IMG/VR virus record: IMGVR_UViG_3300027881_000007
Span: 1-64,000 of that record
DNA length: 64,000 nucleotides
Strand: one strand, 5' to 3'
Source: a virus
Positions within the stretch are counted from its first letter, which is position 1, and each line of letters starts with the position of its first letter. The notes beneath the pieces are model-generated. The model was not told the origin of the DNA, did not search any database, and was given only the letters and a program-made list of their open reading frames with translations. A program made the position numbers and the translations under genes. Below are positions 20,817-59,872 of the stretch, one piece after another.

Positions 20817-21797
20817 TCAAGCATCATCTGAACAAATGGCCCTCATGTTCCAATTACTAATATCTCTAGTATTAACTCCTTCGATAATCCAGTCTTCTTT
20901 AACGAAATCTCTTTTCACGGGTCGTATCAACAAATGCCAATTCATGTTCGATTTTTTAAACTCTAGACCTTTTAGAACCTGAGAGAGTTTATCACATACA
21001 CCATAATTGAAAACCATAGAGAAATTAAAAGGTTTTTTCCTTATTACATAACGCAGTATATTGTCAAGAGACTCAACGTCTTCAATTGTATAATCAACAA
21101 TATAACCATTTTGACTTCTTGGCTGTGTTGAAAACATGACGTAACCTGTTTCTTTACCATTCTTTTTATAACTAAAAAATTTGTAATTATCCTTAGGATT
21201 CGCCATCTTCCACTGAAAGTATTTCTCACTGCGTACTGGTAAAATTTTATCAGGCACGTCTTCTCTTGAGATAAAGCTACAGATCTTTTTCAAGTCTGGA
21301 GTTTTCAGAGAGGAGACGTTGTCAAAATCTCCTTCTATCTGGTTATCTCCTTCTGATGGACCTCTTATCCAATATTGTTTTTCTAAAAGTTTTCCAAAAC
21401 CCAATTTTACATATCCAGGCATTGAAGTTGTCCCAGAGGTAAAATTTAGGATCAACTTGTAATCTAAAAATTCATTTGCTGCCCAACCCATCGCTACTGA
21501 TAAACCCTTCATACGATGTTTCTCGTTTACAATTGTATCTCCAGCAGTTAACGTTTTAAATTCCTTTCCATTAACTTTCCACTTCATAGGAGAATAAGCT
21601 CTAAACCCTACAACTTTTCCCCTGTGTAAAGCAACAATTGCGTGCGGAAAGTCTGAATAAGGATTCTCGTAGTGCTTCCATTTAAGACGTGAGATTCTAT
21701 GGTCACGCTTATATCCCCAAAGAGCCTTTATCACTTTCACGACTTGATCCATATGGTCGTGGTGATAGGGAACAATTTCATAGTTTCCGTGTATCAT
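20817..21797 (-). CDS. GNAT-family N-acyltransferase-like protein
   Basis: 326 residues. The N-terminal 170 residues follow the GNAT pattern: YEIVPYHHDHMDQVVKVIKAL, then strands around HAIVALHRGKVVGFRAY, the substrate strand TAGDTIVNEKHRMKGLSVAMG (pyrophosphate-loop region) and a final FTSGTTSMPGYVKLGF. The C-terminal half looks like a second, degenerate GNAT repeat. It overlaps the upstream BKACE gene by 4 bases (ATGA), so the two are translationally coupled and probably act together. Acetyl-CoA made by a BKACE reaction could feed the transferase (inference). A sugar or amine acceptor on a surface glycan is possible. Confidence 0.7.
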   Translation of the reverse strand: MIHGNYEIVPYHHDHMDQVVKVIKALWGYKRDHRISRLKWKHYENPYSDFPHAIVALHRGKVVGFRAYSPMKWKVNGKEFKTLTAGDTIVNEKHRMKGLSVAMGWAANEFLDYKLILNFTSGTTSMPGYVKLGFGKLLEKQYWIRGPSEGDNQIEGDFDNVSSLKTPDLKKICSFISREDVPDKILPVRSEKYFQWKMANPKDNYKFFSYKKNGKETGYVMFSTQPRSQNGYIVDYTIEDVESLDNILRYVIRKKPFNFSMVFNYGVCDKLSQVLKGLEFKKSNMNWHLLIRPVKRDFVKEDWIIEGVNTRDISNWNMRAICSDDA

Positions 21798-22663
21798 TGT
21801 TTCAATCCACTAATCCTTCCATAATTTCCATTGTGTTGAAGAGCCAACAGTCTTCTAAATTCATTTGGAGACATGAGTTTTCTTTCATTTGCTTCAGCTA
21901 ATTTGTGAATACGTTTTAAGAGATCAGAGTTTTTAGCAAGTTTGGTCCTATCTTTATCATACCAAATATTATCTTCAAGACCAACTCTTACTCCCCCACC
22001 ATAAGCAATAGCAATTGAATTTACCATTGACTGTGTATTACCCACACCAGCCGCACTCCAGTAAGACCAGTCGGGCAGATCATTTATCATAACTCCCATG
22101 TGTAGTAGACTAGCTTGAGCACACGCTATATTGCCAAACAGTAAATTGAAATAGTGAGGAGGATCTAGTAAACCTTTCTTCTCTAAATATTTAGCATAGT
22201 TAATCATACCTGAATCAAACGCTTCAAGTTCTGCTAAGATACCACGAATCTTCATTACTCTTGCAAGATCCTGTATCATTTCTGGAGAACTCACACTTGC
22301 TTGACGATTGAAGTTAACTGAACTCAAAGTTAAACTGCCCATATCTGGTTTTAGATCCCCATTGAGTTGTAATACTTCTGCTCGCTCCTCAAACTTTTTG
22401 AATGTGCGTCCACTTAGAGAAACACATATTACTAAATCTTTTGAGAATTTTCGAATACCTTCAATGATATTTCTATAGACTGTTGCTTTATATGTTGATT
22501 CTCCAGTCTTCTCATCTCGTGCGTGAATGTGAACAACAGTGATGCCAATATCGTACGCCTCATGTACGTCTTCTATAATCTCGTTGATAGTGATAGGTAC
22601 GTGGGGGGTCATTTCTTTGGTAGGAATCATGCCGGTAGGAGTGAAATTTACAATTAGATTCAT
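21794..22663 (-). CDS. BKACE-family enzyme (DUF849, beta-keto acid cleavage)
   Basis: 289 residues, normal length for the family. BKACE enzymes are zinc-dependent TIM barrels that split beta-keto acids with acetyl-CoA. The VHIHAR motif supplies the two zinc histidines (45 and 47). Near residue 230, GGGVRVGLEDN has Arg, Glu and Asp at the same spacing as R226, E230 and D231 of the characterised enzyme Kce, and HYFNLLFG is the usual strand before it. The active site therefore looks intact. Such an enzyme is unexpected among tail-fibre genes. The product may supply an acyl group to the coupled GNAT protein; the substrate cannot be told from sequence. Confidence 0.85.
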   Translation of the reverse strand: MNLIVNFTPTGMIPTKEMTPHVPITINEIIEDVHEAYDIGITVVHIHARDEKTGESTYKATVYRNIIEGIRKFSKDLVICVSLSGRTFKKFEERAEVLQLNGDLKPDMGSLTLSSVNFNRQASVSSPEMIQDLARVMKIRGILAELEAFDSGMINYAKYLEKKGLLDPPHYFNLLFGNIACAQASLLHMGVMINDLPDWSYWSAAGVGNTQSMVNSIAIAYGGGVRVGLEDNIWYDKDRTKLAKNSDLLKRIHKLAEANERKLMSPNEFRRLLALQHNGNYGRISGLKQ

Positions 22664-49501: not shown

Positions 49502-49747
49502 TCAACTCCTTCTCTTTGAGGACTTAGACTTCAGTTTCTTGATTTTGTGTCCCTTCACTTTGTGAGGTGGCAACTTATAACCTACAAGCTCCCCCGAGAA
49601 TCTGCCAAATACATCCATGGGTTTTAGTCTTTTATTGCACACGGGACATCTATATTTCTTATCATTATCGTCGAACCATGCTTCACCAGTACACCAGTCG
49701 CTCATTCTAAATCTCCCATGACCTCCCTTACCTTCTCGCTTGCTCAA
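49502..49747 (-). CDS. Small basic zinc-ribbon protein
   Basis: 81 residues. A CPVC pair (YRCPVCNKRLKPMDVFGRFSG) and one upstream Cys (SDWCTGEAW) sit between basic ends (KREGKGGHGRFRM; KVKGHKIKKLKSKSSKRRS). Probably binds nucleic acid. Confidence 0.55.
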   Translation of the reverse strand: MSKREGKGGHGRFRMSDWCTGEAWFDDNDKKYRCPVCNKRLKPMDVFGRFSGELVGYKLPPHKVKGHKIKKLKSKSSKRRS

Positions 49748-50096
49748 CTAAACCTTCTATTCTGTCTAATATTCCTAAGTAATTTAATTCGCCGGCCGTG
49801 TACTTGTGCTCATTATCATTTAACCACTGTACCATGCTTTTATATGTATCTAAGTACTCTGAACACACAACTTTACACACTGGGTCAACTAAACATTCCC
49901 CACATACTACACCTGATATAACAGTTAGTACTTCTCTAGCCGTGGGACCACACTCAAATTTATAGTTTAAACCTATCATCTTAATATTTACTGTTGGCTT
50001 CTTACATCCCTTTAGTTGTTGGTGTTCCTTCGAACCGGACGGGATGTTTATATAAATGGGGTCTACTGCTGTTAATTTATCTCTCATTATTTCCAT
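49728..50096 (-). CDS. C-x2-C-x5-C-x3-C family protein 6
   Basis: 122 residues from the ATG at 50096 (GGGGGA four bases upstream). CGECLVDPVCKVVC is followed by SEYLDTYKSMVQWLNDNEHK and a helix. About 65 residues precede the motif. Subgroup A. Confidence 0.65.
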   Translation of the reverse strand: MEIMRDKLTAVDPIYINIPSGSKEHQQLKGCKKPTVNIKMIGLNYKFECGPTAREVLTVISGVVCGECLVDPVCKVVCSEYLDTYKSMVQWLNDNEHKYTAGELNYLGILDRIEGLVEQARR

Positions 50097-50326
50097 CAAT
50101 TCCCCCAAGTCTCTACTAACTCGTCTAGTTTTATTTTGAACTCATCTTCTGTAACATTGTATCCTTTTATCCTGGAGAACCAACTTATCATTGTTCCATG
50201 TATCATGGAGTAGTTGTGACATGACATTTCACATATGAAACCAACCAGGCAGTCCTTACATACAACTTCCTCTATAGCAATTAATATATGTCTACCCCAT
50301 CCCGGTTTCCATTCTACTTGCTCCAC
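50096..50326 (-). CDS. C-x2-C-x5-C-x3-C family protein 7
   Basis: 76 residues. CKDCLVGFICEMSC near residue 23, then HNYSMIHGTMISWFSRIKGY and EDEFKIKLDELVE. Very similar in layout to copy 4. Stop and next start overlap (TGATG). Confidence 0.65.
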   Translation of the reverse strand: MEQVEWKPGWGRHILIAIEEVVCKDCLVGFICEMSCHNYSMIHGTMISWFSRIKGYNVTEDEFKIKLDELVETWGN

Positions 50327-50574
50327 GTTTCACCCTTCTTCCTCTGTATTACACTCATTGCCTGCCTGAGAAAATGTTGCTCAACCTTCTTTGTATAGGG
50401 ACGACTTTTGTCTATTCTACCAGTTGCACGTTCCGCCCAATCATACTTTCCTCTGCCGTCACAATGAGGACATACAATTGCCTCTGGTTCAAATGGTTCA
50501 TCATTCGTGGGTGCTAATACTAGTCCAACTCCACTACATTGACCACATAAATATTCACCCTCTTTTAATCTCAC
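50314..50574 (-). CDS. DnaJ-type zinc-finger protein
   Basis: 86 residues. CGQCSGVGLVLAP and CPHCDGRGKYDW are CxxCxGxG repeats of the DnaJ cysteine-rich type, two repeats giving one zinc site. The rest is a basic helix. No J domain is present. Role unknown, possibly a protein-folding or binding adaptor. Confidence 0.7.
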   Translation of the reverse strand: MRLKEGEYLCGQCSGVGLVLAPTNDEPFEPEAIVCPHCDGRGKYDWAERATGRIDKSRPYTKKVEQHFLRQAMSVIQRKKGETWSK

Positions 50575-50815
50575 TAAATCTATCCTTCCATGTTTCGTGT
50601 GTAATCAATATAGCCTTCGCTCGATGTGAGAGTATACCTTTAGCTTCAAATACTTCCCATAGTTCATCACAGACTTCACTACAGTTCATAAACAATATGC
50701 AGTCACTACATTTCTCTTCGACTACCTGAGTTGCCTTGTCGGCCATCTCACTCCAGTCTTGTTTGTTCTTCGTTATTTCTCTTGGGAATAGTTTCACTTT
50801 ATATAATCTCCCCAT
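50555..50815 (-). CDS. C-x2-C-x5-C-x3-C family protein 8
   Basis: 86 residues. CSDCILFMNCSEVC, then DELWEVFEAKGILSHRAKAIL. Subgroup B (D-E-L-W after the last Cys, then SHR or THR) with copies 9 and 10. An internal ATG at 50746 with GGAG is an alternative start that keeps the motif. Confidence 0.65.
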   Translation of the reverse strand: MGRLYKVKLFPREITKNKQDWSEMADKATQVVEEKCSDCILFMNCSEVCDELWEVFEAKGILSHRAKAILITHETWKDRFSEIKRG

Positions 50816-51000
50816 CTATCAACTACATGTCTCACTCGATGTGCCATACTTACAGGGGTTATGAGATCTAAAGGGATATTGATATTATTCTCCCTTAATA
50901 CCTCGTATAAGTCGACACAGGATTCGCTACATCTGGTGTACAATAGGCATCCCTGACATTTCTCTAAAATAATTTCAACTAATCTTTCAGCTTCTCTCAT
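50794..51000 (-). CDS. C-x2-C-x5-C-x3-C family protein 9
   Basis: 68 residues. CQGCLLYTRCSESC near residue 15, then VDLYEVLRENNINIPLDLIT and AHRVRHVVDRWG. Subgroup B. It directly follows copy 10. Confidence 0.65.
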   Translation of the reverse strand: MREAERLVEIILEKCQGCLLYTRCSESCVDLYEVLRENNINIPLDLITPVSMAHRVRHVVDRWGDYIK

Positions 51001-51201
51001 TTAATACTTATTCCTCCACGCATTCCGTATGAGTATACCCATTACTCGATGTGTATAGATTTTCTCCCTTTCAAATTCGCTCCACAACTCATCACAGACT
51101 TCACTACAATTCACTTGTACTATACACTTTTTACAATGTCCTCTAATAAGTTTAAGAGCTCTATCCACTTTTTCATTATCTGATAGTTCACGATCCTTCA
51201 T
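51001..51201 (-). CDS. C-x2-C-x5-C-x3-C family protein 10
   Basis: 66 residues from the ATG at 51201 (GAGG six bases upstream). CKKCIVQVNCSEVC, then DELWSEFEREKIYTHRVMGIL. Closest to copy 8. Subgroup B. Confidence 0.65.
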   Translation of the reverse strand: MKDRELSDNEKVDRALKLIRGHCKKCIVQVNCSEVCDELWSEFEREKIYTHRVMGILIRNAWRNKY

Positions 51202-51463
51202 ATGGAACCTCTTCACTTGTAACAGTATGCTTAAGAAACTTAACCATAGTTAGAATGTCTTTTTCTTCCATATCCCCTTGTGCTTTAATCCTCTCTAGAG
51301 AGGTCATGTATATCTCATTAAACTCGGGGCAAATGTCAGAGCATGTTGTACTAACTAAACAATCAGGACAGAGCACTTTGACTATTGTAATCGCCATTAC
51401 TCTTATCGCTCTGGCTGGAACTTGAGGTTGATTCGTTGCTTTGTGACTATAACTATGTCTCAT
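51188..51463 (-). CDS. C-x2-C-x5-C-x3-C family protein 11
   Basis: 91 residues. CPDCLVSTTCSDIC near residue 33, then PEFNEIYMTSLERIKAQGD and a helical tail. The N-terminus is basic (SYSHKATNQPQVPARAIR). Four-base overlap with gene 51460-51663. Confidence 0.65.
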   Translation of the reverse strand: MRHSYSHKATNQPQVPARAIRVMAITIVKVLCPDCLVSTTCSDICPEFNEIYMTSLERIKAQGDMEEKDILTMVKFLKHTVTSEEVPYEGS

Positions 51464-51663
51464 TTTAGAGCATCCAGTATGGCAACTACATGGTTGCCCG
51501 TCGCACCACAGTAACCATTATATGCTTCTGGAACATTAATGTCCCACGTCTTAATAACATCCCACACAGCGTTAAATTCAGGTGTCTCCAGTTCTTCTGG
51601 TAGTGGATCTCTCCACTCGATTGGGTTCTTCAGTTCATTCACTTCTTTCACTTCTCTCTTCAT
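51460..51663 (-). CDS. Small acidic protein
   Basis: 67 residues from the ATG at 51663 (AAGGAG upstream). PIEWRDPLPEELETPEFNAV and NGYCGATGNHVVAILDAL suggest a small folded domain. Not recognised. Confidence 0.5.
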   Translation of the reverse strand: MKREVKEVNELKNPIEWRDPLPEELETPEFNAVWDVIKTWDINVPEAYNGYCGATGNHVVAILDALK

Positions 51664-51677
51664 TCGCTTGTCTCCTT

Positions 51678-51908
51678 TTAACCAAATAACCAATGAGCAA
51701 AGTCTAACAGTACCATATCTCTAAACTTTAAAATGAATCCATATAATCCGAAAACAATCAAAACTAGATATAAAAATCCTAAGAACATCGCAATAGTTGC
51801 TAGTGCAGATGCCAGGACTGCCAACCAGTGAAGTATTTTACGCCACCAGGGCAGTCCGGCATACCATTTTTCAAATGGTTTAGGATATTTCTGTTTAACT
51901 TTTGCCAC
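51678..51908 (-). CDS. Small membrane protein
   Basis: 76 residues. A basic, aromatic N-terminus (KPFEKWYAGLPWWRKIL) and one or two membrane helices (HWLAVLASALATIAMFLGFL; YLVLIVFGLYGFIL). Unknown function. Confidence 0.5.
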   Translation of the reverse strand: MAKVKQKYPKPFEKWYAGLPWWRKILHWLAVLASALATIAMFLGFLYLVLIVFGLYGFILKFRDMVLLDFAHWLFG

Positions 51909-51926
51909 TGCAAAATCCTATGCTTA

Positions 51927-52052
51927 TCATTTCTTAAATAAAGATTTAACCCACTCAACAAACTTATCAACGTACTTCTTCACCAACGCTGGTTGTGCAA
52001 TAAAATTCCAACCAACTATTAAACCTATTCCAAAACTAATAATAAGGTCCAT
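51927..52052 (-). CDS. Small membrane protein
   Basis: 41 residues with AGGAGG nine bases before the ATG. A hydrophobic segment (LIISFGIGLIVGWNFIA) and an amphipathic basic tail (VKKYVDKFVEWVKSLFKK). Too short for the supplied frame list but well supported by its ribosome site. Confidence 0.55.
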   Translation of the reverse strand: MDLIISFGIGLIVGWNFIAQPALVKKYVDKFVEWVKSLFKK

Positions 52053-52064
52053 AATAATTGCCTC

Positions 52065-52271
52065 CTAGTATGGTATGATTGTGATTAAATCGGCCACCCC
52101 ATAACCTCCGTGGCCATTGCCCTCGCAGTTGTGCATATTAAATAGATGATCTCGGGGCACTTTGAATGTATTACTAATTAGGACATCCTGTAAAATTTTA
52201 TCTGGTACTATTTTCTCTTCTTTGTAAGTTAGTCCACAGTTTCTACAAGTGTAGACGAACTCGTTTTCCAT
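52065..52271 (-). CDS. Small zinc-ribbon-like protein
   Basis: 68 residues. CRNC near the start and a late His/Cys cluster (HNCEGNGHGGYG) can bind zinc. It overlaps the next gene by 43 bases. Confidence 0.5.
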   Translation of the reverse strand: MENEFVYTCRNCGLTYKEEKIVPDKILQDVLISNTFKVPRDHLFNMHNCEGNGHGGYGVADLITIIPY

Positions 52272-52471
52272 GTTCCCTCCTCCTTCATTCGTTGTATATC
52301 ACTGACTTTTGTAAGATGACACCCACAAGTACACCATGTGAATCTTTTATCCTTTTCAAATAGTTCATATTCCTTTTCTTGTTTAAATCTTTCTATTGAT
52401 TCTGGAGACCATGTTTGATTACAGTTGTAGCATTTCCATAACCATCTATAATCATCTGGAAGTTTTCCCAT
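52229..52471 (-). CDS. Small zinc-binding protein
   Basis: 80 residues from the ATG at 52471 (GGGAG upstream). CYNC and CTCGCH pairs surround an acidic/basic helix (RFKQEKEYELFEKDKRF). Two-site zinc ribbon. Unknown role. Confidence 0.55.
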   Translation of the reverse strand: MGKLPDDYRWLWKCYNCNQTWSPESIERFKQEKEYELFEKDKRFTWCTCGCHLTKVSDIQRMKEEGTWKTSSSTLVETVD

Positions 52472-52476
52472 TGTTT

Positions 52477-52668
52477 TTACTCCCAATAAATACAGTCAAC
52501 GGGGCACACTTCCATTGCCTCTGCTATACATTCTTGATCAGTACTATCTGGGTCGATAACTTCTGCCAGCTCTGTGGACTCATTAAAACGAAATATGTCA
52601 GGACATACAATGACACAATTTTCACATCCATTACATTCATCCGCATCTATTCTAACTCCTTTAGCCAT
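52477..52668 (-). CDS. Ferredoxin ([4Fe-4S] type)
   Basis: 63 residues, the size of small bacterial ferredoxins. DADECNGCENCVIVCPDIF carries C-x2-C-x2-C-x3-C-P, and a second region ends MEVCPVDCIYWE. One complete cluster motif is present, and the last Cys pair can complete or stabilise it. Phage ferredoxins can supply electrons to reductases or radical SAM enzymes; the local radical SAM protein is a possible partner (inference). Confidence 0.85.
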   Translation of the reverse strand: MAKGVRIDADECNGCENCVIVCPDIFRFNESTELAEVIDPDSTDQECIAEAMEVCPVDCIYWE

Positions 52669-52679
52669 ACCTAACTCCT

Positions 52680-52907
52680 TTATGTATATTGATGATTCTT
52701 CTGTTCTTTCACATCTCTTGCCATTGATAATAACTCCGCTTTACGTTCAACTGTTCTATCGTGATGTCTAGTGTCTGCACACATTATCATTAGATAATCT
52801 ATGCCTTCACAGTATTCACTACAAGTTGCTCTAACTATACAACCTTTACATACTATTTCTTTAATTGCTTTCTTACATTCATTATACATACGAATATGTT
52901 CTTTCAT
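52680..52907 (-). CDS. C-x2-C-x5-C-x3-C family protein 12
   Basis: 75 residues. CKGCIVRATCSEYC near residue 21, then EGIDYLMIMCADTRHHD with an extra Cys and two His. Its ATG overlaps the stop of gene 52904-53251. Confidence 0.65.
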   Translation of the reverse strand: MKEHIRMYNECKKAIKEIVCKGCIVRATCSEYCEGIDYLMIMCADTRHHDRTVERKAELLSMARDVKEQKNHQYT

Positions 52908-53251
52908 CTACGGTCCTCTGCAAGTTTTCTCTTAAACGCATCTACACATCTTCCGCATATGTCATATTCTTCTTTAAGTTTTTCAATGTATGATTCGCTT
53001 CCGTCCCATACTTGTTTAGAAGGATACAAATCAATACCGCAGCATCCTCGGGATGATCCTCCTTTTATGTGCACTTTCTTAGATTTTGAGGTCTGTTTAA
53101 CAATTAGAACAAGTTTTCTAGTACCAACTCTTGCCTTTGCTCGTCTTTTCCTTCTTCTTTCTTCTAGTATAAAGTCTGGAACTACTCCACCAAATATGGA
53201 TCTACAGGGACCCATGTGTGCCTTTCCACAATCCCAACACCGATCAGTCAT
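52904..53251 (-). CDS. Zinc-binding basic protein
   Basis: 115 residues from the ATG at 53251 (AAGGAG upstream). CWDCGKAHMGPC at the start, a basic middle (RRRKRRAKARVGTRKLVLIV), GCCGIDLYPSK, and CGRCVDAFKRKL at the end. The three Cys groups suggest two metal sites. Likely nucleic acid binding. Confidence 0.6.
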   Translation of the reverse strand: MTDRCWDCGKAHMGPCRSIFGGVVPDFILEERRRKRRAKARVGTRKLVLIVKQTSKSKKVHIKGGSSRGCCGIDLYPSKQVWDGSESYIEKLKEEYDICGRCVDAFKRKLAEDRR

Positions 53252-53289
53252 CTTCGTCTCCTTCACTATTCACAGATACTCATCTTCAC

Positions 53290-53556
53290 TTATACATATA
53301 CTCCAACAATGATGCCACCGATTGTAAAAAATAAAAGATCTAATGCTGTATCGTCCCAATGACCTATAGGCCATTGATCAATTGTTTCTCGGGGTAGACC
53401 TAATAGAAAACCGCTTATCCCTCCCATGTACCAGTTGGGATTACTAGCTATAGGGTATAATGCAATTGCTGCCCAAGCTAAGTGAAAGAGTTGATCAAGT
53501 CTTTTTCTCCATGTCTTACCAATCAATTCATCAATCTTGTCTTTAATAGCCATCAT
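53290..53556 (-). CDS. Small membrane protein
   Basis: 88 residues with hydrophobic helices near 27-48 and 68-88. GFLLGLPRETIDQWPIGHWD is a conserved-looking loop that I recall from phage membrane proteins. No function known. Confidence 0.5.
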   Translation of the reverse strand: MMAIKDKIDELIGKTWRKRLDQLFHLAWAAIALYPIASNPNWYMGGISGFLLGLPRETIDQWPIGHWDDTALDLLFFTIGGIIVGVYV

Positions 53557-53761
53557 CTTCCCCTTTAGTTAGTCCTTTCGCACTATCTATAGCTAATTGC
53601 TTAACCTCATCTGGAGACAACCTTCTACCTATTCTCCCCTCTATTGTATTCATTTGTCTATAAACGGGATTGAAAACTTCGCGATATGTATCGCACGGCA
53701 TATCACAAGTAGCATGAACTATACAACCTTTACATATTATCTCGACGACTTCTTCGATCAT
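53543..53761 (-). CDS. C-x2-C-x5-C-x3-C family protein 13
   Basis: 72 residues. CKGCIVHATCDMPC near residue 10, then DTYREVFNPVYRQMNTIEG. Very close to copy 12 in the motif (CKGCIVxATC). It marks the right end of the family cluster. Confidence 0.65.
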   Translation of the reverse strand: MIEEVVEIICKGCIVHATCDMPCDTYREVFNPVYRQMNTIEGRIGRRLSPDEVKQLAIDSAKGLTKGEDDGY

Positions 53762-54928: not shown

Positions 54929-55204
54929 TTATGGGCGAGGAATCTGATCTTTATCGTCTGGGGGAGAAGTTTTGGGAGATTTATCTTTAGGATCCTTCTT
55001 TTTAGCAGCAGCAGCCCACTCTTGAATCTTATTTGAACCTACATAAGCACCCCACAAAATTGCAACTAATTCTGGGGTTAAAGAAGGATATGGTTTTTCA
55101 AAATACCAAGCAAATGGAAACATAAATACAACCATACCTGTAAGAATTGTAGCAAAGAATGCAGTCTTTGAGGCCTTGTTATCAACACTCCATAAGAATT
55201 TCAT
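54929..55204 (-). CDS. Small membrane protein (holin-like size)
   Basis: 91 residues from the ATG at 55204 (GAGGAG upstream). Two hydrophobic stretches (AFFATILTGMVVFMFPFAWY; PELVAILWGAYVG) and a charged, Pro-rich tail (KKKDPKDKSPKTSPPDD). The topology suits a holin or a membrane partner of the spanin-like genes next to it; not proved. Confidence 0.5.
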   Translation of the reverse strand: MKFLWSVDNKASKTAFFATILTGMVVFMFPFAWYFEKPYPSLTPELVAILWGAYVGSNKIQEWAAAAKKKDPKDKSPKTSPPDDKDQIPRP

Positions 55205-55932
55205 TGTATTCTCCTCACAAAAAGTAATGGCCATCTCTCATCGAAATTAGTAAAGTGTCGGTTCAACTGTTTCACTTCTTTTGTATCTGGAATATCTAAT
55301 CTGTTTGGTTTAACTTTATATCTAACATTCCCTGTGAGGACACATCCTTCAACTAGTCCACAAAACTGAGCAACCCGTTTTCCCCTTCTTTTAGGTTTTT
55401 TACAGTAGTCTTCATATCTCACAACCTTATATAAATCTGAAGGTAGTGTTGTTAATTGTGTATTTAAACGAGATAACTGTTCTTCGTGAATAACAGCTCC
55501 AGCCCTAAGATTTACTGAATGTCTTCTCCGAAAAGTTGATAAGACACACATTATAGGATTTCTAACCATTACAACTATTTTTAAATCATCCTTAAACAAA
55601 TCATATACATCATATAGATCTGGAGCGGAACGAGCACTCCCTCCAAAGGGTGCAGACCGTTTATATAGTACAACATCCTTTCTTGGAAATTTTTGAAGAA
55701 GTTTATCAATCATTGGTTGTATTTGACTCTTAGCATCTTGATGTTGTTTAAAGTCGCCTTGGCGATCCCACATTGTTCTTGTCAACTCATTAAACTCATT
55801 AATCAAGGGATCATTAAGTGGTCGATGATTTCCGCCAAGAGTTAAAACATTGCCCGGAGTGCTTAGTATTCTGAGCATCATTGTCGTACCAGAACCAGAG
55901 CAACCAACAATAAAGATAAACTTATAACTCAC
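55201..55932 (-). CDS. Sulfotransferase-like protein A
   Basis: 243 residues. IFIVGCSGSGTTMMLRIL is the 5'-phosphosulfate loop of PAPS-dependent sulfotransferases, and IVVMVRNPIMCVLSTFRRRHS is the 3'-phosphate motif (RNP then S). The rest fits a P-loop sulfotransferase. Part of a run of four such proteins (55201-58994) next to an APS-kinase-like gene. Acceptor unknown; glycans are likely. Confidence 0.75.
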   Translation of the reverse strand: MSYKFIFIVGCSGSGTTMMLRILSTPGNVLTLGGNHRPLNDPLINEFNELTRTMWDRQGDFKQHQDAKSQIQPMIDKLLQKFPRKDVVLYKRSAPFGGSARSAPDLYDVYDLFKDDLKIVVMVRNPIMCVLSTFRRRHSVNLRAGAVIHEEQLSRLNTQLTTLPSDLYKVVRYEDYCKKPKRRGKRVAQFCGLVEGCVLTGNVRYKVKPNRLDIPDTKEVKQLNRHFTNFDERWPLLFVRRIQ

Positions 55933-55941
55933 TTCAATCTC

Positions 55942-56532
55942 CTATAATACTAAGACAAGAGCAATCCCAACAGCAATTGCTCCTATAACTCCAAGGGTAA
56001 TTTTATTTTCAATTCTTTGTTTCTCTAATTTATATTCCAACTGTAGAACTCTATTCTCGGCATTTACCCATAGAGTCCTGTAACGCTGAATGGTTATATC
56101 TTGGAGTTTGACAACATCTAACATTGCATTGTAAAGTTCAACTTCAACTTGTACTCTCTGAACCAATAGTTCAGAAATTTCAGCCATCATTTTGCCTTGC
56201 TCAATCTTGGCAACTATTTTGTTGTGCTCTTCAACAAGATATCCAACTACTTCAGCACCCTCTGGCACTTCCCCTTCCCAATCAAACTCTGTAGTCTGAC
56301 CTTTTCTTATTAAGATAATGGGAACAGGTTCATTCATTTTATGAACTTTATGAAGTATCTGCTTTAGTTTATCAACTCTGAGTTTGAAGGGGCGTTGGAA
56401 TCTCTCTTCCATTTCAATGGGTTTAAATTCATCTGGAGGCTTGAAATCTTTTGGACCGCTGGCACAACTAGTCAGCAGACCAATTCCAAGCAGCACGTAG
56501 ACGATCCAGGGACTCCTTAGCCGTTTGAACAT
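55942..56532 (-). CDS. Spanin-like lipoprotein with C-terminal membrane helix
   Basis: 196 residues. Signal peptide with lipobox LLTSC (Cys23), a long periplasmic helical part (ISELLVQRVQVEVELYNAML; RVLQLEYKLEKQRIENK) and a C-terminal membrane helix (ITLGVIGAIAVGIALVLVL). An outer-membrane lipid anchor plus an inner-membrane helix is the layout of unimolecular spanins, which fuse the two membranes at lysis. The gene start is embedded in the end of gene 56468-56839, as in Rz/Rz1 pairs. Confidence 0.65.
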   Translation of the reverse strand: MFKRLRSPWIVYVLLGIGLLTSCASGPKDFKPPDEFKPIEMEERFQRPFKLRVDKLKQILHKVHKMNEPVPIILIRKGQTTEFDWEGEVPEGAEVVGYLVEEHNKIVAKIEQGKMMAEISELLVQRVQVEVELYNAMLDVVKLQDITIQRYRTLWVNAENRVLQLEYKLEKQRIENKITLGVIGAIAVGIALVLVL

Positions 56533-56839
56533 TTTTTATCTCCTTAACGGTTCTATTAAAAGTCCTAATAGACCTACCTAAGTCGATCTTAACCACTTGC
56601 GCCACCTCTTCTCTTTTTGTCATCTTCGTTGCTAGGTTGTCATTTGCAACAGCAAGCTGACTTAGTGCAGTTGTTAGTTGTTGCATTTGAACGAACTGTT
56701 TCATTTCATAGTTGTGGCGGTCCGTTAGCATATCCTTTGTCTCACTACGATAGCTAAGAAATATAATGAGAATAATAATAGCGAGAATGAATATGCCAAA
56801 GTCCTTAATTATTCCTAAGGCCTTGCTGAGTGCATCCAT
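56468..56839 (-). CDS. Membrane coiled-coil protein (inner spanin-like)
   Basis: 123 residues from the ATG at 56839 (AAAGGAG upstream). One N-terminal membrane helix (FGIFILAIIILIIFLSY), then a coiled coil (FVQMQQLTTALSQLAVANDN). It overlaps the spanin-like lipoprotein gene by 65 bases in another frame, as inner spanins (Rz) overlap Rz1. Together they suggest a two-gene lysis module, although the partner alone could span both membranes. Confidence 0.6.
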   Translation of the reverse strand: MDALSKALGIIKDFGIFILAIIILIIFLSYRSETKDMLTDRHNYEMKQFVQMQQLTTALSQLAVANDNLATKMTKREEVAQVVKIDLGRSIRTFNRTVKEIKNVQTAKESLDRLRAAWNWSAD

Positions 56840-57627
56840 TATACCCACTCCTTTATTCTATATCCCAAAAGGTCAAACAGTTTTTCATTTTGTTCTCTGT
56901 AAAAGATATTAAATTCTCTCCTCACCTTTTTCTCCATTGGTTCGAAATTAGCCCCTACCCTTGACCAAACCTTATATACCTTTTCTTGGCTGTCCTTATA
57001 CATATCCCCTGTTTTCTTGCTATACCTTTTAGAAGGATGAATAATTTCAGTGGGAAAGTCAATAGGATCTGCTCCAAGAAATTCGTGTATCTTACTCATC
57101 TCATTAGTGGTATCTTCTTTCATCCTTTCGACAATGTATATATGAACCTGTTCTCTAGGAATATTTATAAAGACATTTTCTGCAAGATGCTTATAATATC
57201 TTCCCAATCTCAGATACATAGTCTTAAATTTTCTACAATTTTCTAAAGTAAATTTCCAGTTCACTTTTTTTGCTTGAACATTCATTCTATAGTGTGAGTA
57301 TGCCCGATCAGTTGGATTTCTAATTCCTATTATCAGTTTTGTGTCAGGAGCATATCTGCCCATAAGTCTCATAGCTTTTCTATGTCCTGCATAATCTGGA
57401 CTTTTTTCACCAGAAATTTTTCCCACAAACTTACTCTTATACCATTTAATTCCTTTATTCCAATTGTGTAAACCCCAAAATCTCATTTCAGTTCCACCGC
57501 CTACACCTGGTCTAACTGGACCTCCCCTTTTAGACATTGTTATATCTGGATGTTTATTCAGGTTTAGAAACAACTGAGTAGTTCCACACTTTAAAAAACC
57601 TGCTATTATAAAATCAGGAAGTTTCAA
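56839..57627 (-). CDS. Sulfotransferase B
   Basis: 262 residues, the clearest of the four. DFIIAGFLKCGTTQLFLNLN is the 5'-phosphosulfate loop, and IIGIRNPTDRAYSHYRM is the 3'-phosphate motif typical of heparan-type N-sulfotransferases. GEKSPDYAGHRKAM supplies the region with the catalytic-base-like residues. PAPS is the donor; the acceptor could be an amino sugar or hydroxyl on a glycan. Confidence 0.85.
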   Translation of the reverse strand: MKLPDFIIAGFLKCGTTQLFLNLNKHPDITMSKRGGPVRPGVGGGTEMRFWGLHNWNKGIKWYKSKFVGKISGEKSPDYAGHRKAMRLMGRYAPDTKLIIGIRNPTDRAYSHYRMNVQAKKVNWKFTLENCRKFKTMYLRLGRYYKHLAENVFINIPREQVHIYIVERMKEDTTNEMSKIHEFLGADPIDFPTEIIHPSKRYSKKTGDMYKDSQEKVYKVWSRVGANFEPMEKKVRREFNIFYREQNEKLFDLLGYRIKEWV

Positions 57628-58321
57628 TACAATCTCCTATCTCGTAAACTGGTCCATCGAATTTATTAAATACCTTTATAACATCATTAAATCTTGGGTC
57701 AACCCTTTTCAACATAAAACCATTCTTCTTATGGTTGAGTATTCTCCCAACTCTCATAGGTTCTCTGTAATCGAATGGATCTAGATTACAATGTTCATAA
57801 ATTCTCGCTGATATTTCTTTAAAGTTTGAGACCATATTTTCATACTTTATTGTTAAACAACTTTTTAAGTCTGCAATCATTTCAGTGTACTTTGGTATAT
57901 AAGTAATATACTCATCAATCATTCTGGGAATCTGTTTCATCTTTCCCCTTTTACGATATTTCATTTTTATAATCGAATTCCATGAGTCAAGGGGATGTCT
58001 CACTATTTGAATTATTCTTGCATCACTACCAAAGAGTTCATTCCATTTTTCACAATATTCAACAACTGTAATATTTGATAAATGGCGTTTACCAATTACT
58101 CTCTTTTCGTAGATTAGTTTATCTCCATGATTTAACTTAAACTTAGGGTATTTGTTGTAAAGATAATTCTTAGTTGTAAATTGAAATCTAGATGAATATC
58201 TACTTCGTATTATATGCTCTTCATTAAACATACCTGCCATTTGTGGATGTTTCTTACAAGTCCTATATGTAAGTGTAGTCCCACTTCTTGGAAATCCGAC
58301 AACCAAAACCTTTACTCCCAA
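57614..58321 (-). CDS. Sulfotransferase-like protein C
   Basis: 235 residues. VLVVGFPRSGTTLTYRTCKK is the phosphosulfate loop; IIQIVRHPLDSWNSIIKMKY is the 3'-phosphate motif. ATG overlaps gene B by 14 bases. Substrate unknown. Confidence 0.8.
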   Translation of the reverse strand: MGVKVLVVGFPRSGTTLTYRTCKKHPQMAGMFNEEHIIRSRYSSRFQFTTKNYLYNKYPKFKLNHGDKLIYEKRVIGKRHLSNITVVEYCEKWNELFGSDARIIQIVRHPLDSWNSIIKMKYRKRGKMKQIPRMIDEYITYIPKYTEMIADLKSCLTIKYENMVSNFKEISARIYEHCNLDPFDYREPMRVGRILNHKKNGFMLKRVDPRFNDVIKVFNKFDGPVYEIGDCIETS

Positions 58322-58322
58322 A

Positions 58323-58994
58323 TCATCTCCCCCTTAAACGCTTATGAAACTTGTTAACTTCTCTATAGAGTTCTTTTGTTCTTTCAATAACTACTTCTTC
58401 TACTTCTTTACTTATTGGTTTATTAGTTGAGGCTTTTCTGTGATCTACAACATTTATTAACTTTCTAAATGGTCCAACGTCCTGGAGTTTTATATCGTTT
58501 GTCCATTGTTCAAATCTTACAATAGGATTCCCTGACTCCAAAAAATCAAAAACAACATTGTTCCATCTTGTTGTGTACCAGATAGCTAGTTTCTCTGTGT
58601 CTACGCCTCCAAAGCGTTCAGCCTGTTCGGGGTGTCTTCGACTATACATTGAGCAATAAGCGTACACAGGATTTCGTACAATACACATTGCCTTAATAGA
58701 ATTTATTGTTAGAAATGGAGTAAACTTAGAGACCCCACCACTGAATAGAATGGGTTTTTTAGAATTGTGAACGAACCTTACTAAATTATCGTTAAGATTG
58801 ATAGTCATATCAAGGTCAGTCCCAGTACGTTGTTTCCATCTTTTCTGCATAGTTGCTTTTGGCATATAACATATATCACCTGCGGAACCGATAACTGTAT
58901 CTGGTCGCATATGAGCATTCATCAAACGTCTAACAAGAGATGTGGCATGACCACCCCATGGTGCAATTGCTACTTTAATATTCTGGTTCTTCAT
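58323..58994 (-). CDS. Sulfotransferase-like protein D (diverged)
   Basis: 223 residues from the ATG at 58994 (GGAAGG upstream). The loop IAPWGGHATSLVRRLMNAH is a diverged 5' site lacking the usual K/R-x-G-T-T. MCIVRNPVYAYCSMYSRRHP is a good 3'-phosphate motif. The altered loop could mean a changed donor or loss of activity. Confidence 0.6.
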   Translation of the reverse strand: MKNQNIKVAIAPWGGHATSLVRRLMNAHMRPDTVIGSAGDICYMPKATMQKRWKQRTGTDLDMTINLNDNLVRFVHNSKKPILFSGGVSKFTPFLTINSIKAMCIVRNPVYAYCSMYSRRHPEQAERFGGVDTEKLAIWYTTRWNNVVFDFLESGNPIVRFEQWTNDIKLQDVGPFRKLINVVDHRKASTNKPISKEVEEVVIERTKELYREVNKFHKRLRGR

Positions 58995-59310
58995 ATTCTG
59001 TACCTTCCCATAACTCTCCAAATGGGAGACAAATTTCAAGACATTCCAAAAGTAGTGATTGTGCCTTCTTCCTCCATTCTCTCTTCGGACTAATACAAGC
59101 GACTACAACTGTAAACCCTTGTTCTTCTAATAATGCAGCAAACTTTGCTATGAGCATTATATTGCTTTCTCGTCCCTCATCTGTAAAATCAGAGGGAAAA
59201 TGTTCTCTTATCCTGTCCCCATCTAAAACAATACCATTAGTTTGTCTAGCAATACGATTTGCTAAAGTTGTCTTACCCGCCCCAGATCGACCTGTAATCC
59301 AATATACCAT
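58975..59310 (-). CDS. Short APS-kinase-like (CysC-type) protein
   Basis: 111 residues. P-loop GRSGAGKTT (7-15), then VLDGDRIREHFPSDFTDEGR and NIMLIAKFAALLEEQGFTVVVACISP follow CysC closely. The usual 200-residue protein is shortened: the segment after ISPKREWR is deleted, and it jumps to YEEPEY. APS kinase makes PAPS, the donor for the four sulfotransferases beside it. Whether the short form is active needs testing. Confidence 0.75.
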   Translation of the reverse strand: MVYWITGRSGAGKTTLANRIARQTNGIVLDGDRIREHFPSDFTDEGRESNIMLIAKFAALLEEQGFTVVVACISPKREWRKKAQSLLLECLEICLPFGELWEGTEYEEPEY

Positions 59311-59322
59311 TTATGTAATCCT

Positions 59323-59832
59323 CTATCTGTTTATATAATCAGTTATCACAGCAGCTCCATGAATAATCTCAACACTCTTCTCAACTATTTCAGCACCCTC
59401 TTCATGAGTTGGAGGTTCAAGTTCTAAGCTCGCTTGCATCCTTTCCATAACAACTAAAGGAAAATCAGATTCGATTGCTCTTTCAATACAAGTTTCATAT
59501 GGAGTTTTTACATAAATAATTGTTACATCTGCTCCATATTCTTTACCTAAGTTGATTACTTTCTCTCTTCTAAATTTTGTTGTGTGTGTTCCATCGAGAA
59601 CTACATCTAGTCCTCTGATCAGACTGGCCCTAACCATTGTATTAAATGTGCCCCAAACAAAGTCTTCTAGTTTTGGATCAAATTCAACTCCAAGTGCAAG
59701 TCTAATATCATCACCACAAATGACTTGGTATTCCCGGAGTTCCCGATTCACTATTGTCGACTTCCCGCTCTTTGGGAGGCCGCACATTATCACCATCGTC
59801 GGTCTTCTCTCTACTCCTTGATCTTTCGGCAT
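59323..59832 (-). CDS. P-loop kinase (polynucleotide-kinase-like, AAA_33)
   Basis: 169 residues from the ATG at 59832. MCGLPKSGKSTIVNREL is the Walker A loop, VICGDDIRLAL the next motif, DVVLDGTHTTKFRREKVINL the nucleotide kinase signature. It is of the type that phosphorylates nucleic acid 5' ends, sugars or small molecules. It directly follows the small YYExII frame and precedes the APS kinase, so it may belong to the sulfation module or be independent. Confidence 0.75.
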   Translation of the reverse strand: MPKDQGVERRPTMVIMCGLPKSGKSTIVNRELREYQVICGDDIRLALGVEFDPKLEDFVWGTFNTMVRASLIRGLDVVLDGTHTTKFRREKVINLGKEYGADVTIIYVKTPYETCIERAIESDFPLVVMERMQASLELEPPTHEEGAEIVEKSVEIIHGAAVITDYINR

Positions 59833-59872
59833 TCTCAATTCCCCTTTGAATTATTGTTTCGTAGTAGTCCAT
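59711..59872 (-). CDS. Possible overlapping small protein (YYExII N-terminus)
   Basis: 53 residues whose ATG overlaps the upstream stop (TAATG). MDYYETIIQRGIENAERS resembles the start of gene 1120-1299 (MNYYERIIRKG). The rest is charged and Pro-rich and overlaps the kinase gene in another frame over 122 bases, so it may be partly accidental. Confidence 0.4.
   Translation of the reverse strand: MDYYETIIQRGIENAERSRSREKTDDGDNVRPPKEREVDNSESGTPGIPSHLW

What the first reader, a model, noticed from the sequence alone, without database searches (positions are those of the whole stretch)
55201..59310. Four sulfotransferase-like genes beside an APS kinase
Seen: proteins A (55201-55932), B (56839-57627), C (57614-58321) and D (58323-58994) have P-loop sulfotransferase motifs, and 58975-59310 has CysC motifs. 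Known: CysC makes PAPS, the donor for these enzymes. The set forms a self-contained sulfate-transfer module, unusual for a phage. Gene D has a damaged donor loop and the kinase is short, so parts may be specialised.
Basis: partly seen in the sequence, partly recalled or inferred. Interest (0 to 1): 0.75.

Follow-up and report, generated by a model that had tools for sequence, protein, structure and literature searches.

The report
Phage sulfotransferase array with lidless CysC
A large bacteriophage carries a row of enzymes predicted to add sulfate groups, next to an unusually short version of the enzyme that makes their sulfate donor; this short enzyme turns out to be a family seen so far only in viruses that usually sits beside sulfotransferases, so some phage genes recorded as "sulfate assimilation" may really serve sulfate transfer.

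Summary
On the minus strand, proteins A, B and C match sulfotransferase models above curated cut-offs, and the 111-aa protein K matches APS kinase. D is a divergent, probable sulfotransferase relative. The whole array recurs in identical order in a related 277-kb phage under purifying selection.

K is not a truncation. It belongs to a clade of mostly 111-140-aa, lidless CysC-like kinases. Compared with CysC it lacks the APS-binding lid and the last strand, but has a conserved PxGxLWxGTxYExP tail. Full-length, lidded CysC proteins occur separately in viral records.

In records with K, sulfotransferases occur in 44/50, and within 1 kb on the same strand in 38/50. They occur in 1/50 random viral records and 3/21 with full-length CysC. 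PAPS reductase occurs in 1/50 and ATP sulfurylase above cut-off in 0/50.

Best reading: K converts host APS to PAPS for phage sulfotransferases acting on glycans. Published viral cysC genes of similar length were read as sulfate assimilation. Catalysis by a lidless kinase and the sulfate acceptor are unproven.

The parts
58975..59310 (-). K: lidless CysC-like (APS kinase-type) P-loop kinase, 111 aa
   Evidence: PF01583 E 2.1e-18; model pLDDT 89.6 with APS kinases as best folds, Z up to 16.3; lid and last strand missing
58323..58994 (-). D: divergent probable sulfotransferase-like protein, 223 aa; overlaps the end of K by 20 nt
   Evidence: No Pfam or PDB hit; local alignment with A beyond 500 shuffles; 80% identity in the relative and dN/dS 0.087
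57614..58321 (-). C: Sulfotransfer_3 protein, 235 aa, donor loop GFPRSGTT
   Evidence: PF13469 E 4.5e-16; 70% identical in L002
56839..57627 (-). B: Sulfotransfer_1 protein, 262 aa, heparan-sulfate 3-O-sulfotransferase-like over its full length
   Evidence: PF00685 E 8.5e-16; PDB 1t8t E 3.6e-14 over residues 2-256
55201..55932 (-). A: Sulfotransfer_3 protein, 243 aa, donor loop GCSGSGTT
   Evidence: PF13469 E 8.7e-12; 58% identical in L002
56468..56848 (-). Membrane-anchored Rz-like (spanin) candidate lying between B and A
   Evidence: phrog_739 E 0.0064, weak; same place in the relative
55942..56532 (-). Lipoprotein-like gene overlapping the spanin candidate, between B and A
   Evidence: N-terminal lipobox-like LLTSC read in the sequence; 70% identical in the relative
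59323..59838 (-). AAA_33 / polynucleotide-kinase-like P-loop kinase directly upstream of K
   Evidence: PF13671 E 4.8e-17; 86% identical in the relative

Best explanation
The cluster is a phage sulfate-transfer module. Host ATP sulfurylase supplies APS; the short lidless kinase K phosphorylates it to PAPS; sulfotransferases A, B, C and perhaps D move the sulfate to acceptors, most likely glycans of the virion fibres or of the infected cell surface. Shown here: homology of A, B, C and K, conserved order, purifying selection, and general linkage of the K family to sulfotransferases. Inferred: that K makes PAPS, that the transferases are active, and what the acceptor is.
For: Pfam matches. B is full-length similar to heparan 3-O-sulfotransferases. 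Same order in a relative. dN/dS 0.09-0.25. K fold and profile match APS kinases best, and core APS-site residues remain (R35 42/42, R47 41/42, F/Y42 41/42, P75 42/42). In K records a sulfotransferase lies within 1 kb on the same strand in 38/50 against 12.3 expected by random placement, and in records of 20 kb or more in 9/21 against 1.16. The sulfotransferase is upstream or downstream of K about equally often. Controls: 1/50 random viral records, 3/21 records with lidded CysC. Glycosyltransferases sit near K in other phages and elsewhere in this genome.
Against: K lacks the lid. In M. tuberculosis CysC lid closure is essential, and lid residues Arg559, Lys562 and Phe576 contact the nucleotides (PMC4373884); none is kept in K. 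Six of 34 K clusters have no sulfotransferase found nearby. No acceptor is identified. D is unproven.
Confidence: 0.55

Rival explanations
1. The kinase is an auxiliary gene for assimilatory sulfate reduction: it boosts PAPS for cysteine synthesis in the host, as published viral cysC genes are interpreted, and its neighbours are incidental.
For: Viral cysC genes are reported in this role (PMC9529941, PMC10914622).
Against: PAPS reductase-type genes in 1/50 K records and ATP sulfurylase above cut-off in 0/50, against sulfotransferases in 44/50. Full-length CysC exists in other viral records and rarely has a sulfotransferase.
Confidence: 0.12
2. K has changed substrate after losing the lid: it phosphorylates something other than APS (a sugar, a nucleotide or a protein), and the sulfotransferases use PAPS made by the host. 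The linkage reflects a joint pathway, for example glycan building.
For: Lid Lys, Arg and Phe are lost; gluconate and sugar kinases are the next folds (Z 12.6); glycosyltransferases and methyltransferases near K in several phages; one K fused to a NadM-like nucleotidyltransferase domain.
Against: Core APS-site residues are nearly invariant, and profile hits in the PDB are APS kinases with a clear margin.
Confidence: 0.25
3. K and its partner sulfotransferase form one complex in which the partner closes the open active site, so PAPS passes directly from kinase to transferase. This is a special form of the best explanation, not exclusive of it.
For: Close, same-strand pairing in either order; loss of the part that encloses APS.
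Against: No fusion of the two was seen; no complex was modelled.
Confidence: 0.2

Closest known systems
CysC / APS kinase (PF01583), including APS kinase domains of PAPS synthases
   Same: P-loop, DGD-R motif, F/Y-T-D-x-x-R segment, SP-x-x-x-R segment; fold match Z up to 16.3
   Different: About 25 residues lost inside the lid region (13 before PKG and 12 spanning RAGxxxxFTGID) and no C-terminal strand and helix; new invariant Trp in a PxGxLWxGTxYExP tail; separate side of the tree, support 100/100
Viral cysC auxiliary metabolic genes (Challenger Deep PMC9529941; COBRA freshwater phages PMC10914622)
   Same: Viral APS kinase-like proteins; the Challenger Deep CysC proteins were modelled over 109-135 residues, the size of this family
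   Different: Published reading is sulfate assimilation; neither main text mentions sulfotransferases. I could not compare their sequences.
Phage-encoded Sulfotransfer_3 proteins (OM43 phages, PMC10580990; Synechococcus phage S-SRM01 as cited there)
   Same: Same Pfam family in phages
   Different: Function called unclear, and no kinase partner reported in the passages read
Heparan sulfate 3-O-sulfotransferases (1t8t, 6xkg)
   Same: B aligns over its full length, E 3.6e-14
   Different: No heparan sulfate is expected in a bacterial virus system; acceptor unknown

Membership tests
APS kinase (CysC) | Score over the curated PF01583 cut-off | tested here: met
   67.3 bits against 21.1
APS kinase (CysC) | P-loop, DGD and APS-site core residues | tested here: met
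   K13 and R35 42/42, D30 41/42, D32 40/42, R47 41/42, P75 42/42
APS kinase (CysC) | Lid with Arg, Lys and adenine-stacking Phe (RDPKGLYKKARAGxxxxFTGID) | tested here: not met
   Absent from K and relatives in the alignment with Salmonella CysC; all 20 full-length CysC reads from viral and phage records have it
APS kinase (CysC) | Five-stranded core with C-terminal strand | tested here: not met
   Model has strands 2-7, 27-30, 68-72 and 90-95 only
APS kinase (CysC) | Makes PAPS from APS and ATP | not testable with these tools
   Needs an enzyme assay
PAPS-dependent sulfotransferase: A, B, C | Pfam sulfotransferase score over cut-off | tested here: met
PAPS-dependent sulfotransferase: A, B, C | 5'-PSB loop and 3'-PB Arg/Ser motif | tested here: met
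   In A, C and the phage partner sulfotransferases, donor-loop Gly and Ser and the Arg and Ser of the second motif are invariant; in B read directly: GFLKCGTT and IRNPTDRAYS
PAPS-dependent sulfotransferase: D | Pfam sulfotransferase score or profile match | tested here: not met
   No hit; profile comparison probability 0.3%; structure model failed, pLDDT 31.5
PAPS-dependent sulfotransferase: D | Significant similarity to a sulfotransferase | tested here: inconclusive
   Alignment with A exceeds 500 shuffles, but not with B or C
Assimilatory sulfate reduction module | Kinase found with CysH/CysD or ATP sulfurylase | tested here: not met
   1/50 and 0/50 over cut-off; many records are fragments

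The most novel reading that the evidence does not exclude
Phages have evolved their own minimal, lidless PAPS-making kinase that works only together with partner sulfotransferases and sulfates glycans on virions or infected cells; many viral 'cysC assimilation genes' are in fact this system.
Probability: 0.3. Interest if true: 0.8.

Novelty: new variant of a known kind. Interest (0 to 1): 0.62.

Why it matters
Viral cysC genes are used in ecology papers as evidence that viruses steer sulfate assimilation. If this kinase family feeds sulfotransferases instead, that reading is wrong for a whole class of genes, and sulfation would join glycosylation as a chemistry that phages carry themselves. 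A CysC that works without its lid would also challenge the view that lid closure is essential.

Tried and rejected
K as a broken or truncated gene: rejected, because nearly all of 42 distinct family sequences (90% clustering) are 111-147 aa, the few longer ones carry C-terminal extensions, and all keep the conserved tail. D as a decaying pseudogene: rejected, dN/dS 0.087. Structure of D: failed, only two sequences. DNA search for the region in phage records: no match; C and B not found in phage records. K relatives in phage records: only full-length lidded CysC. Scan of cellular genomes: nothing, but the pattern covers only 11 of 42 K variants, so absence from prophages is weakly tested; a second scan could not be formed. 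B as viral scan query: no relative. Rosetta-stone fusion of K with a nucleotidyltransferase (L047): the domain matches NMN adenylyltransferases rather than ATP sulfurylase and was found only once, so it was not used as evidence for PAPS synthesis. Literature search for a phage cysC-sulfotransferase link: none in this library, which lacks most subscription journals.

Full report
What is there. The window is the first 64 kb of a 113,344-base virus record. A, B and C score above the curated cut-offs of sulfotransferase families, and K (58975-59310) scores above that of APS kinase. D has no family match. K overlaps D by 20 nt, D and C are one base apart, C overlaps B, and B overlaps the next gene (coordinates), so they are probably translated from one message. 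Between B and A lie two overlapping genes, one with a weak Rz-like spanin match and one lipoprotein-like.

Conservation. The same genes in the same order occur in L002-L004, which are identical over the stretch and come from records of up to 277 kb. Most of the 113-kb record is also collinear with the 277-kb record, many proteins (tail sheath and large tail-region proteins among them) at 54-94% identity, so the window is part of a larger phage genome. K (90%) and the neighbouring kinase (86%) are better conserved than A (58%), B (67%) and C (70%). dN/dS is 0.09-0.25 for all, with synonymous sites near saturation for some.

The kinase. K belongs to a family found at 54 viral loci, 34 clusters at 70% identity. 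In the alignment with Salmonella CysC, 13 residues before PKG and 12 residues spanning RAG to FTGID are missing, and the protein ends soon after the YExP segment. In M. tuberculosis CysC this region is the lid (residues 552-581), which carries Arg559, Lys562 and Phe576 at the two nucleotides, and lid closure is essential (PMC4373884). Trp101, Tyr106 and Gly98 are invariant in the new tail; that Trp101 takes over adenine stacking is only a guess. The model is confident (pLDDT 89.6) with four strands, and the best folds are APS kinases, Z 16.3 to 12.9, then gluconate kinases at 12.6. A profile of the family finds APS kinases in the PDB at E down to 2e-24. Lidless and lidded forms fall on the two sides of one branch with support 100/100. 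The relatives of K in the annotated phage records are lidded full-length CysC.

Link to sulfotransferases. Of 50 records with K (window relatives left out), 44 have a PF13469 match. In 38 it lies within 1 kb, always on the same strand; random placement within the same records would give 12.3, and in records of 20 kb or more 9 of 21 against 1.16. By clusters of K at 70% identity my tally is 28 of 34, with the sulfotransferase downstream in 14 and upstream in 14, so the link does not rest on one inherited arrangement. Controls: 1 of 50 viral records picked by an arbitrary 15-mer and 3 of 21 viral records with full-length CysC. Some of the 44 matches are weak by score, but most of the adjacent ones carry the loop G-x-ARSGTS and the second motif. 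PAPS reductase-type genes occur in 1 of 50 K records and ATP sulfurylase above cut-off in none; many records are fragments, so these are lower bounds. In one relative a Sulfotransfer_2 gene and glycosyltransferase-like genes also stand near K, and glycosyltransferases do so in others.

Acceptors. B is similar over its full length to heparan 3-O-sulfotransferases, which points to sugars. The genome encodes glycosyltransferases of families 2, 9 and group 1 beside large tail-region proteins with Thr/Ser/Pro runs, one with 322 such residues in nine runs; the relative has them too. That these runs are glycosylated and sulfated is a hypothesis without test.

Known work. Sulfotransferases in phages are known and their function is called unclear (PMC10580990). 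Viral cysC genes are read as sulfate assimilation (PMC9529941, PMC10914622); the Challenger Deep proteins were modelled over 109-135 residues, which fits the lidless family, but I could not see their sequences. I found no paper in this library that links the two.

Verdict. Enzyme activity and acceptor remain open.

Noticed in passing
window 5773-26322: Large tail-region proteins with long Thr/Ser/Pro runs (up to 322 residues in nine runs in the 2070-aa protein), conserved in type in the 277-kb relative; possible O-glycan carriers.
   Followed up: partly
window 20817-22663: A beta-keto acid cleavage enzyme (PF05853, E 2.9e-77) next to a GNAT acetyltransferase inside the tail gene region, 88% and 66% identical in the relative.
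   Followed up: partly
window 49728-53761: Series of small paralogous-looking proteins sharing a C-x-x-C...C-x-x-x-C pattern (e.g. ICKGCIVHATCDMPC), about eight copies.
   Followed up: no
L047:6001-6720: Lidless CysC fused to a NadM-like nucleotidyltransferase domain (PF01467), an arrangement that recalls kinase plus adenylyltransferase PAPS synthases; single case.
   Followed up: partly
L002:8465-9439: PfkB-family sugar kinase resembling HldE, just upstream of the cassette in the relative and absent at that place in the window.
   Followed up: partly
L048:6378-7016: Gene beside K with a P-loop-like SRTGHN start and no Pfam match; may be a divergent sulfotransferase like D.
   Followed up: no
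L023, L024, L027, L029: K homologues next to a deaminase-like gene and an unknown Cys-containing protein, without a sulfotransferase nearby: the main exception to the pairing.
   Followed up: partly
window 55942-56848: Two overlapping genes in different frames, one weakly Rz-like (phrog_739) and one lipoprotein-like, possibly a spanin pair, which would suggest a Gram-negative host.
   Followed up: no
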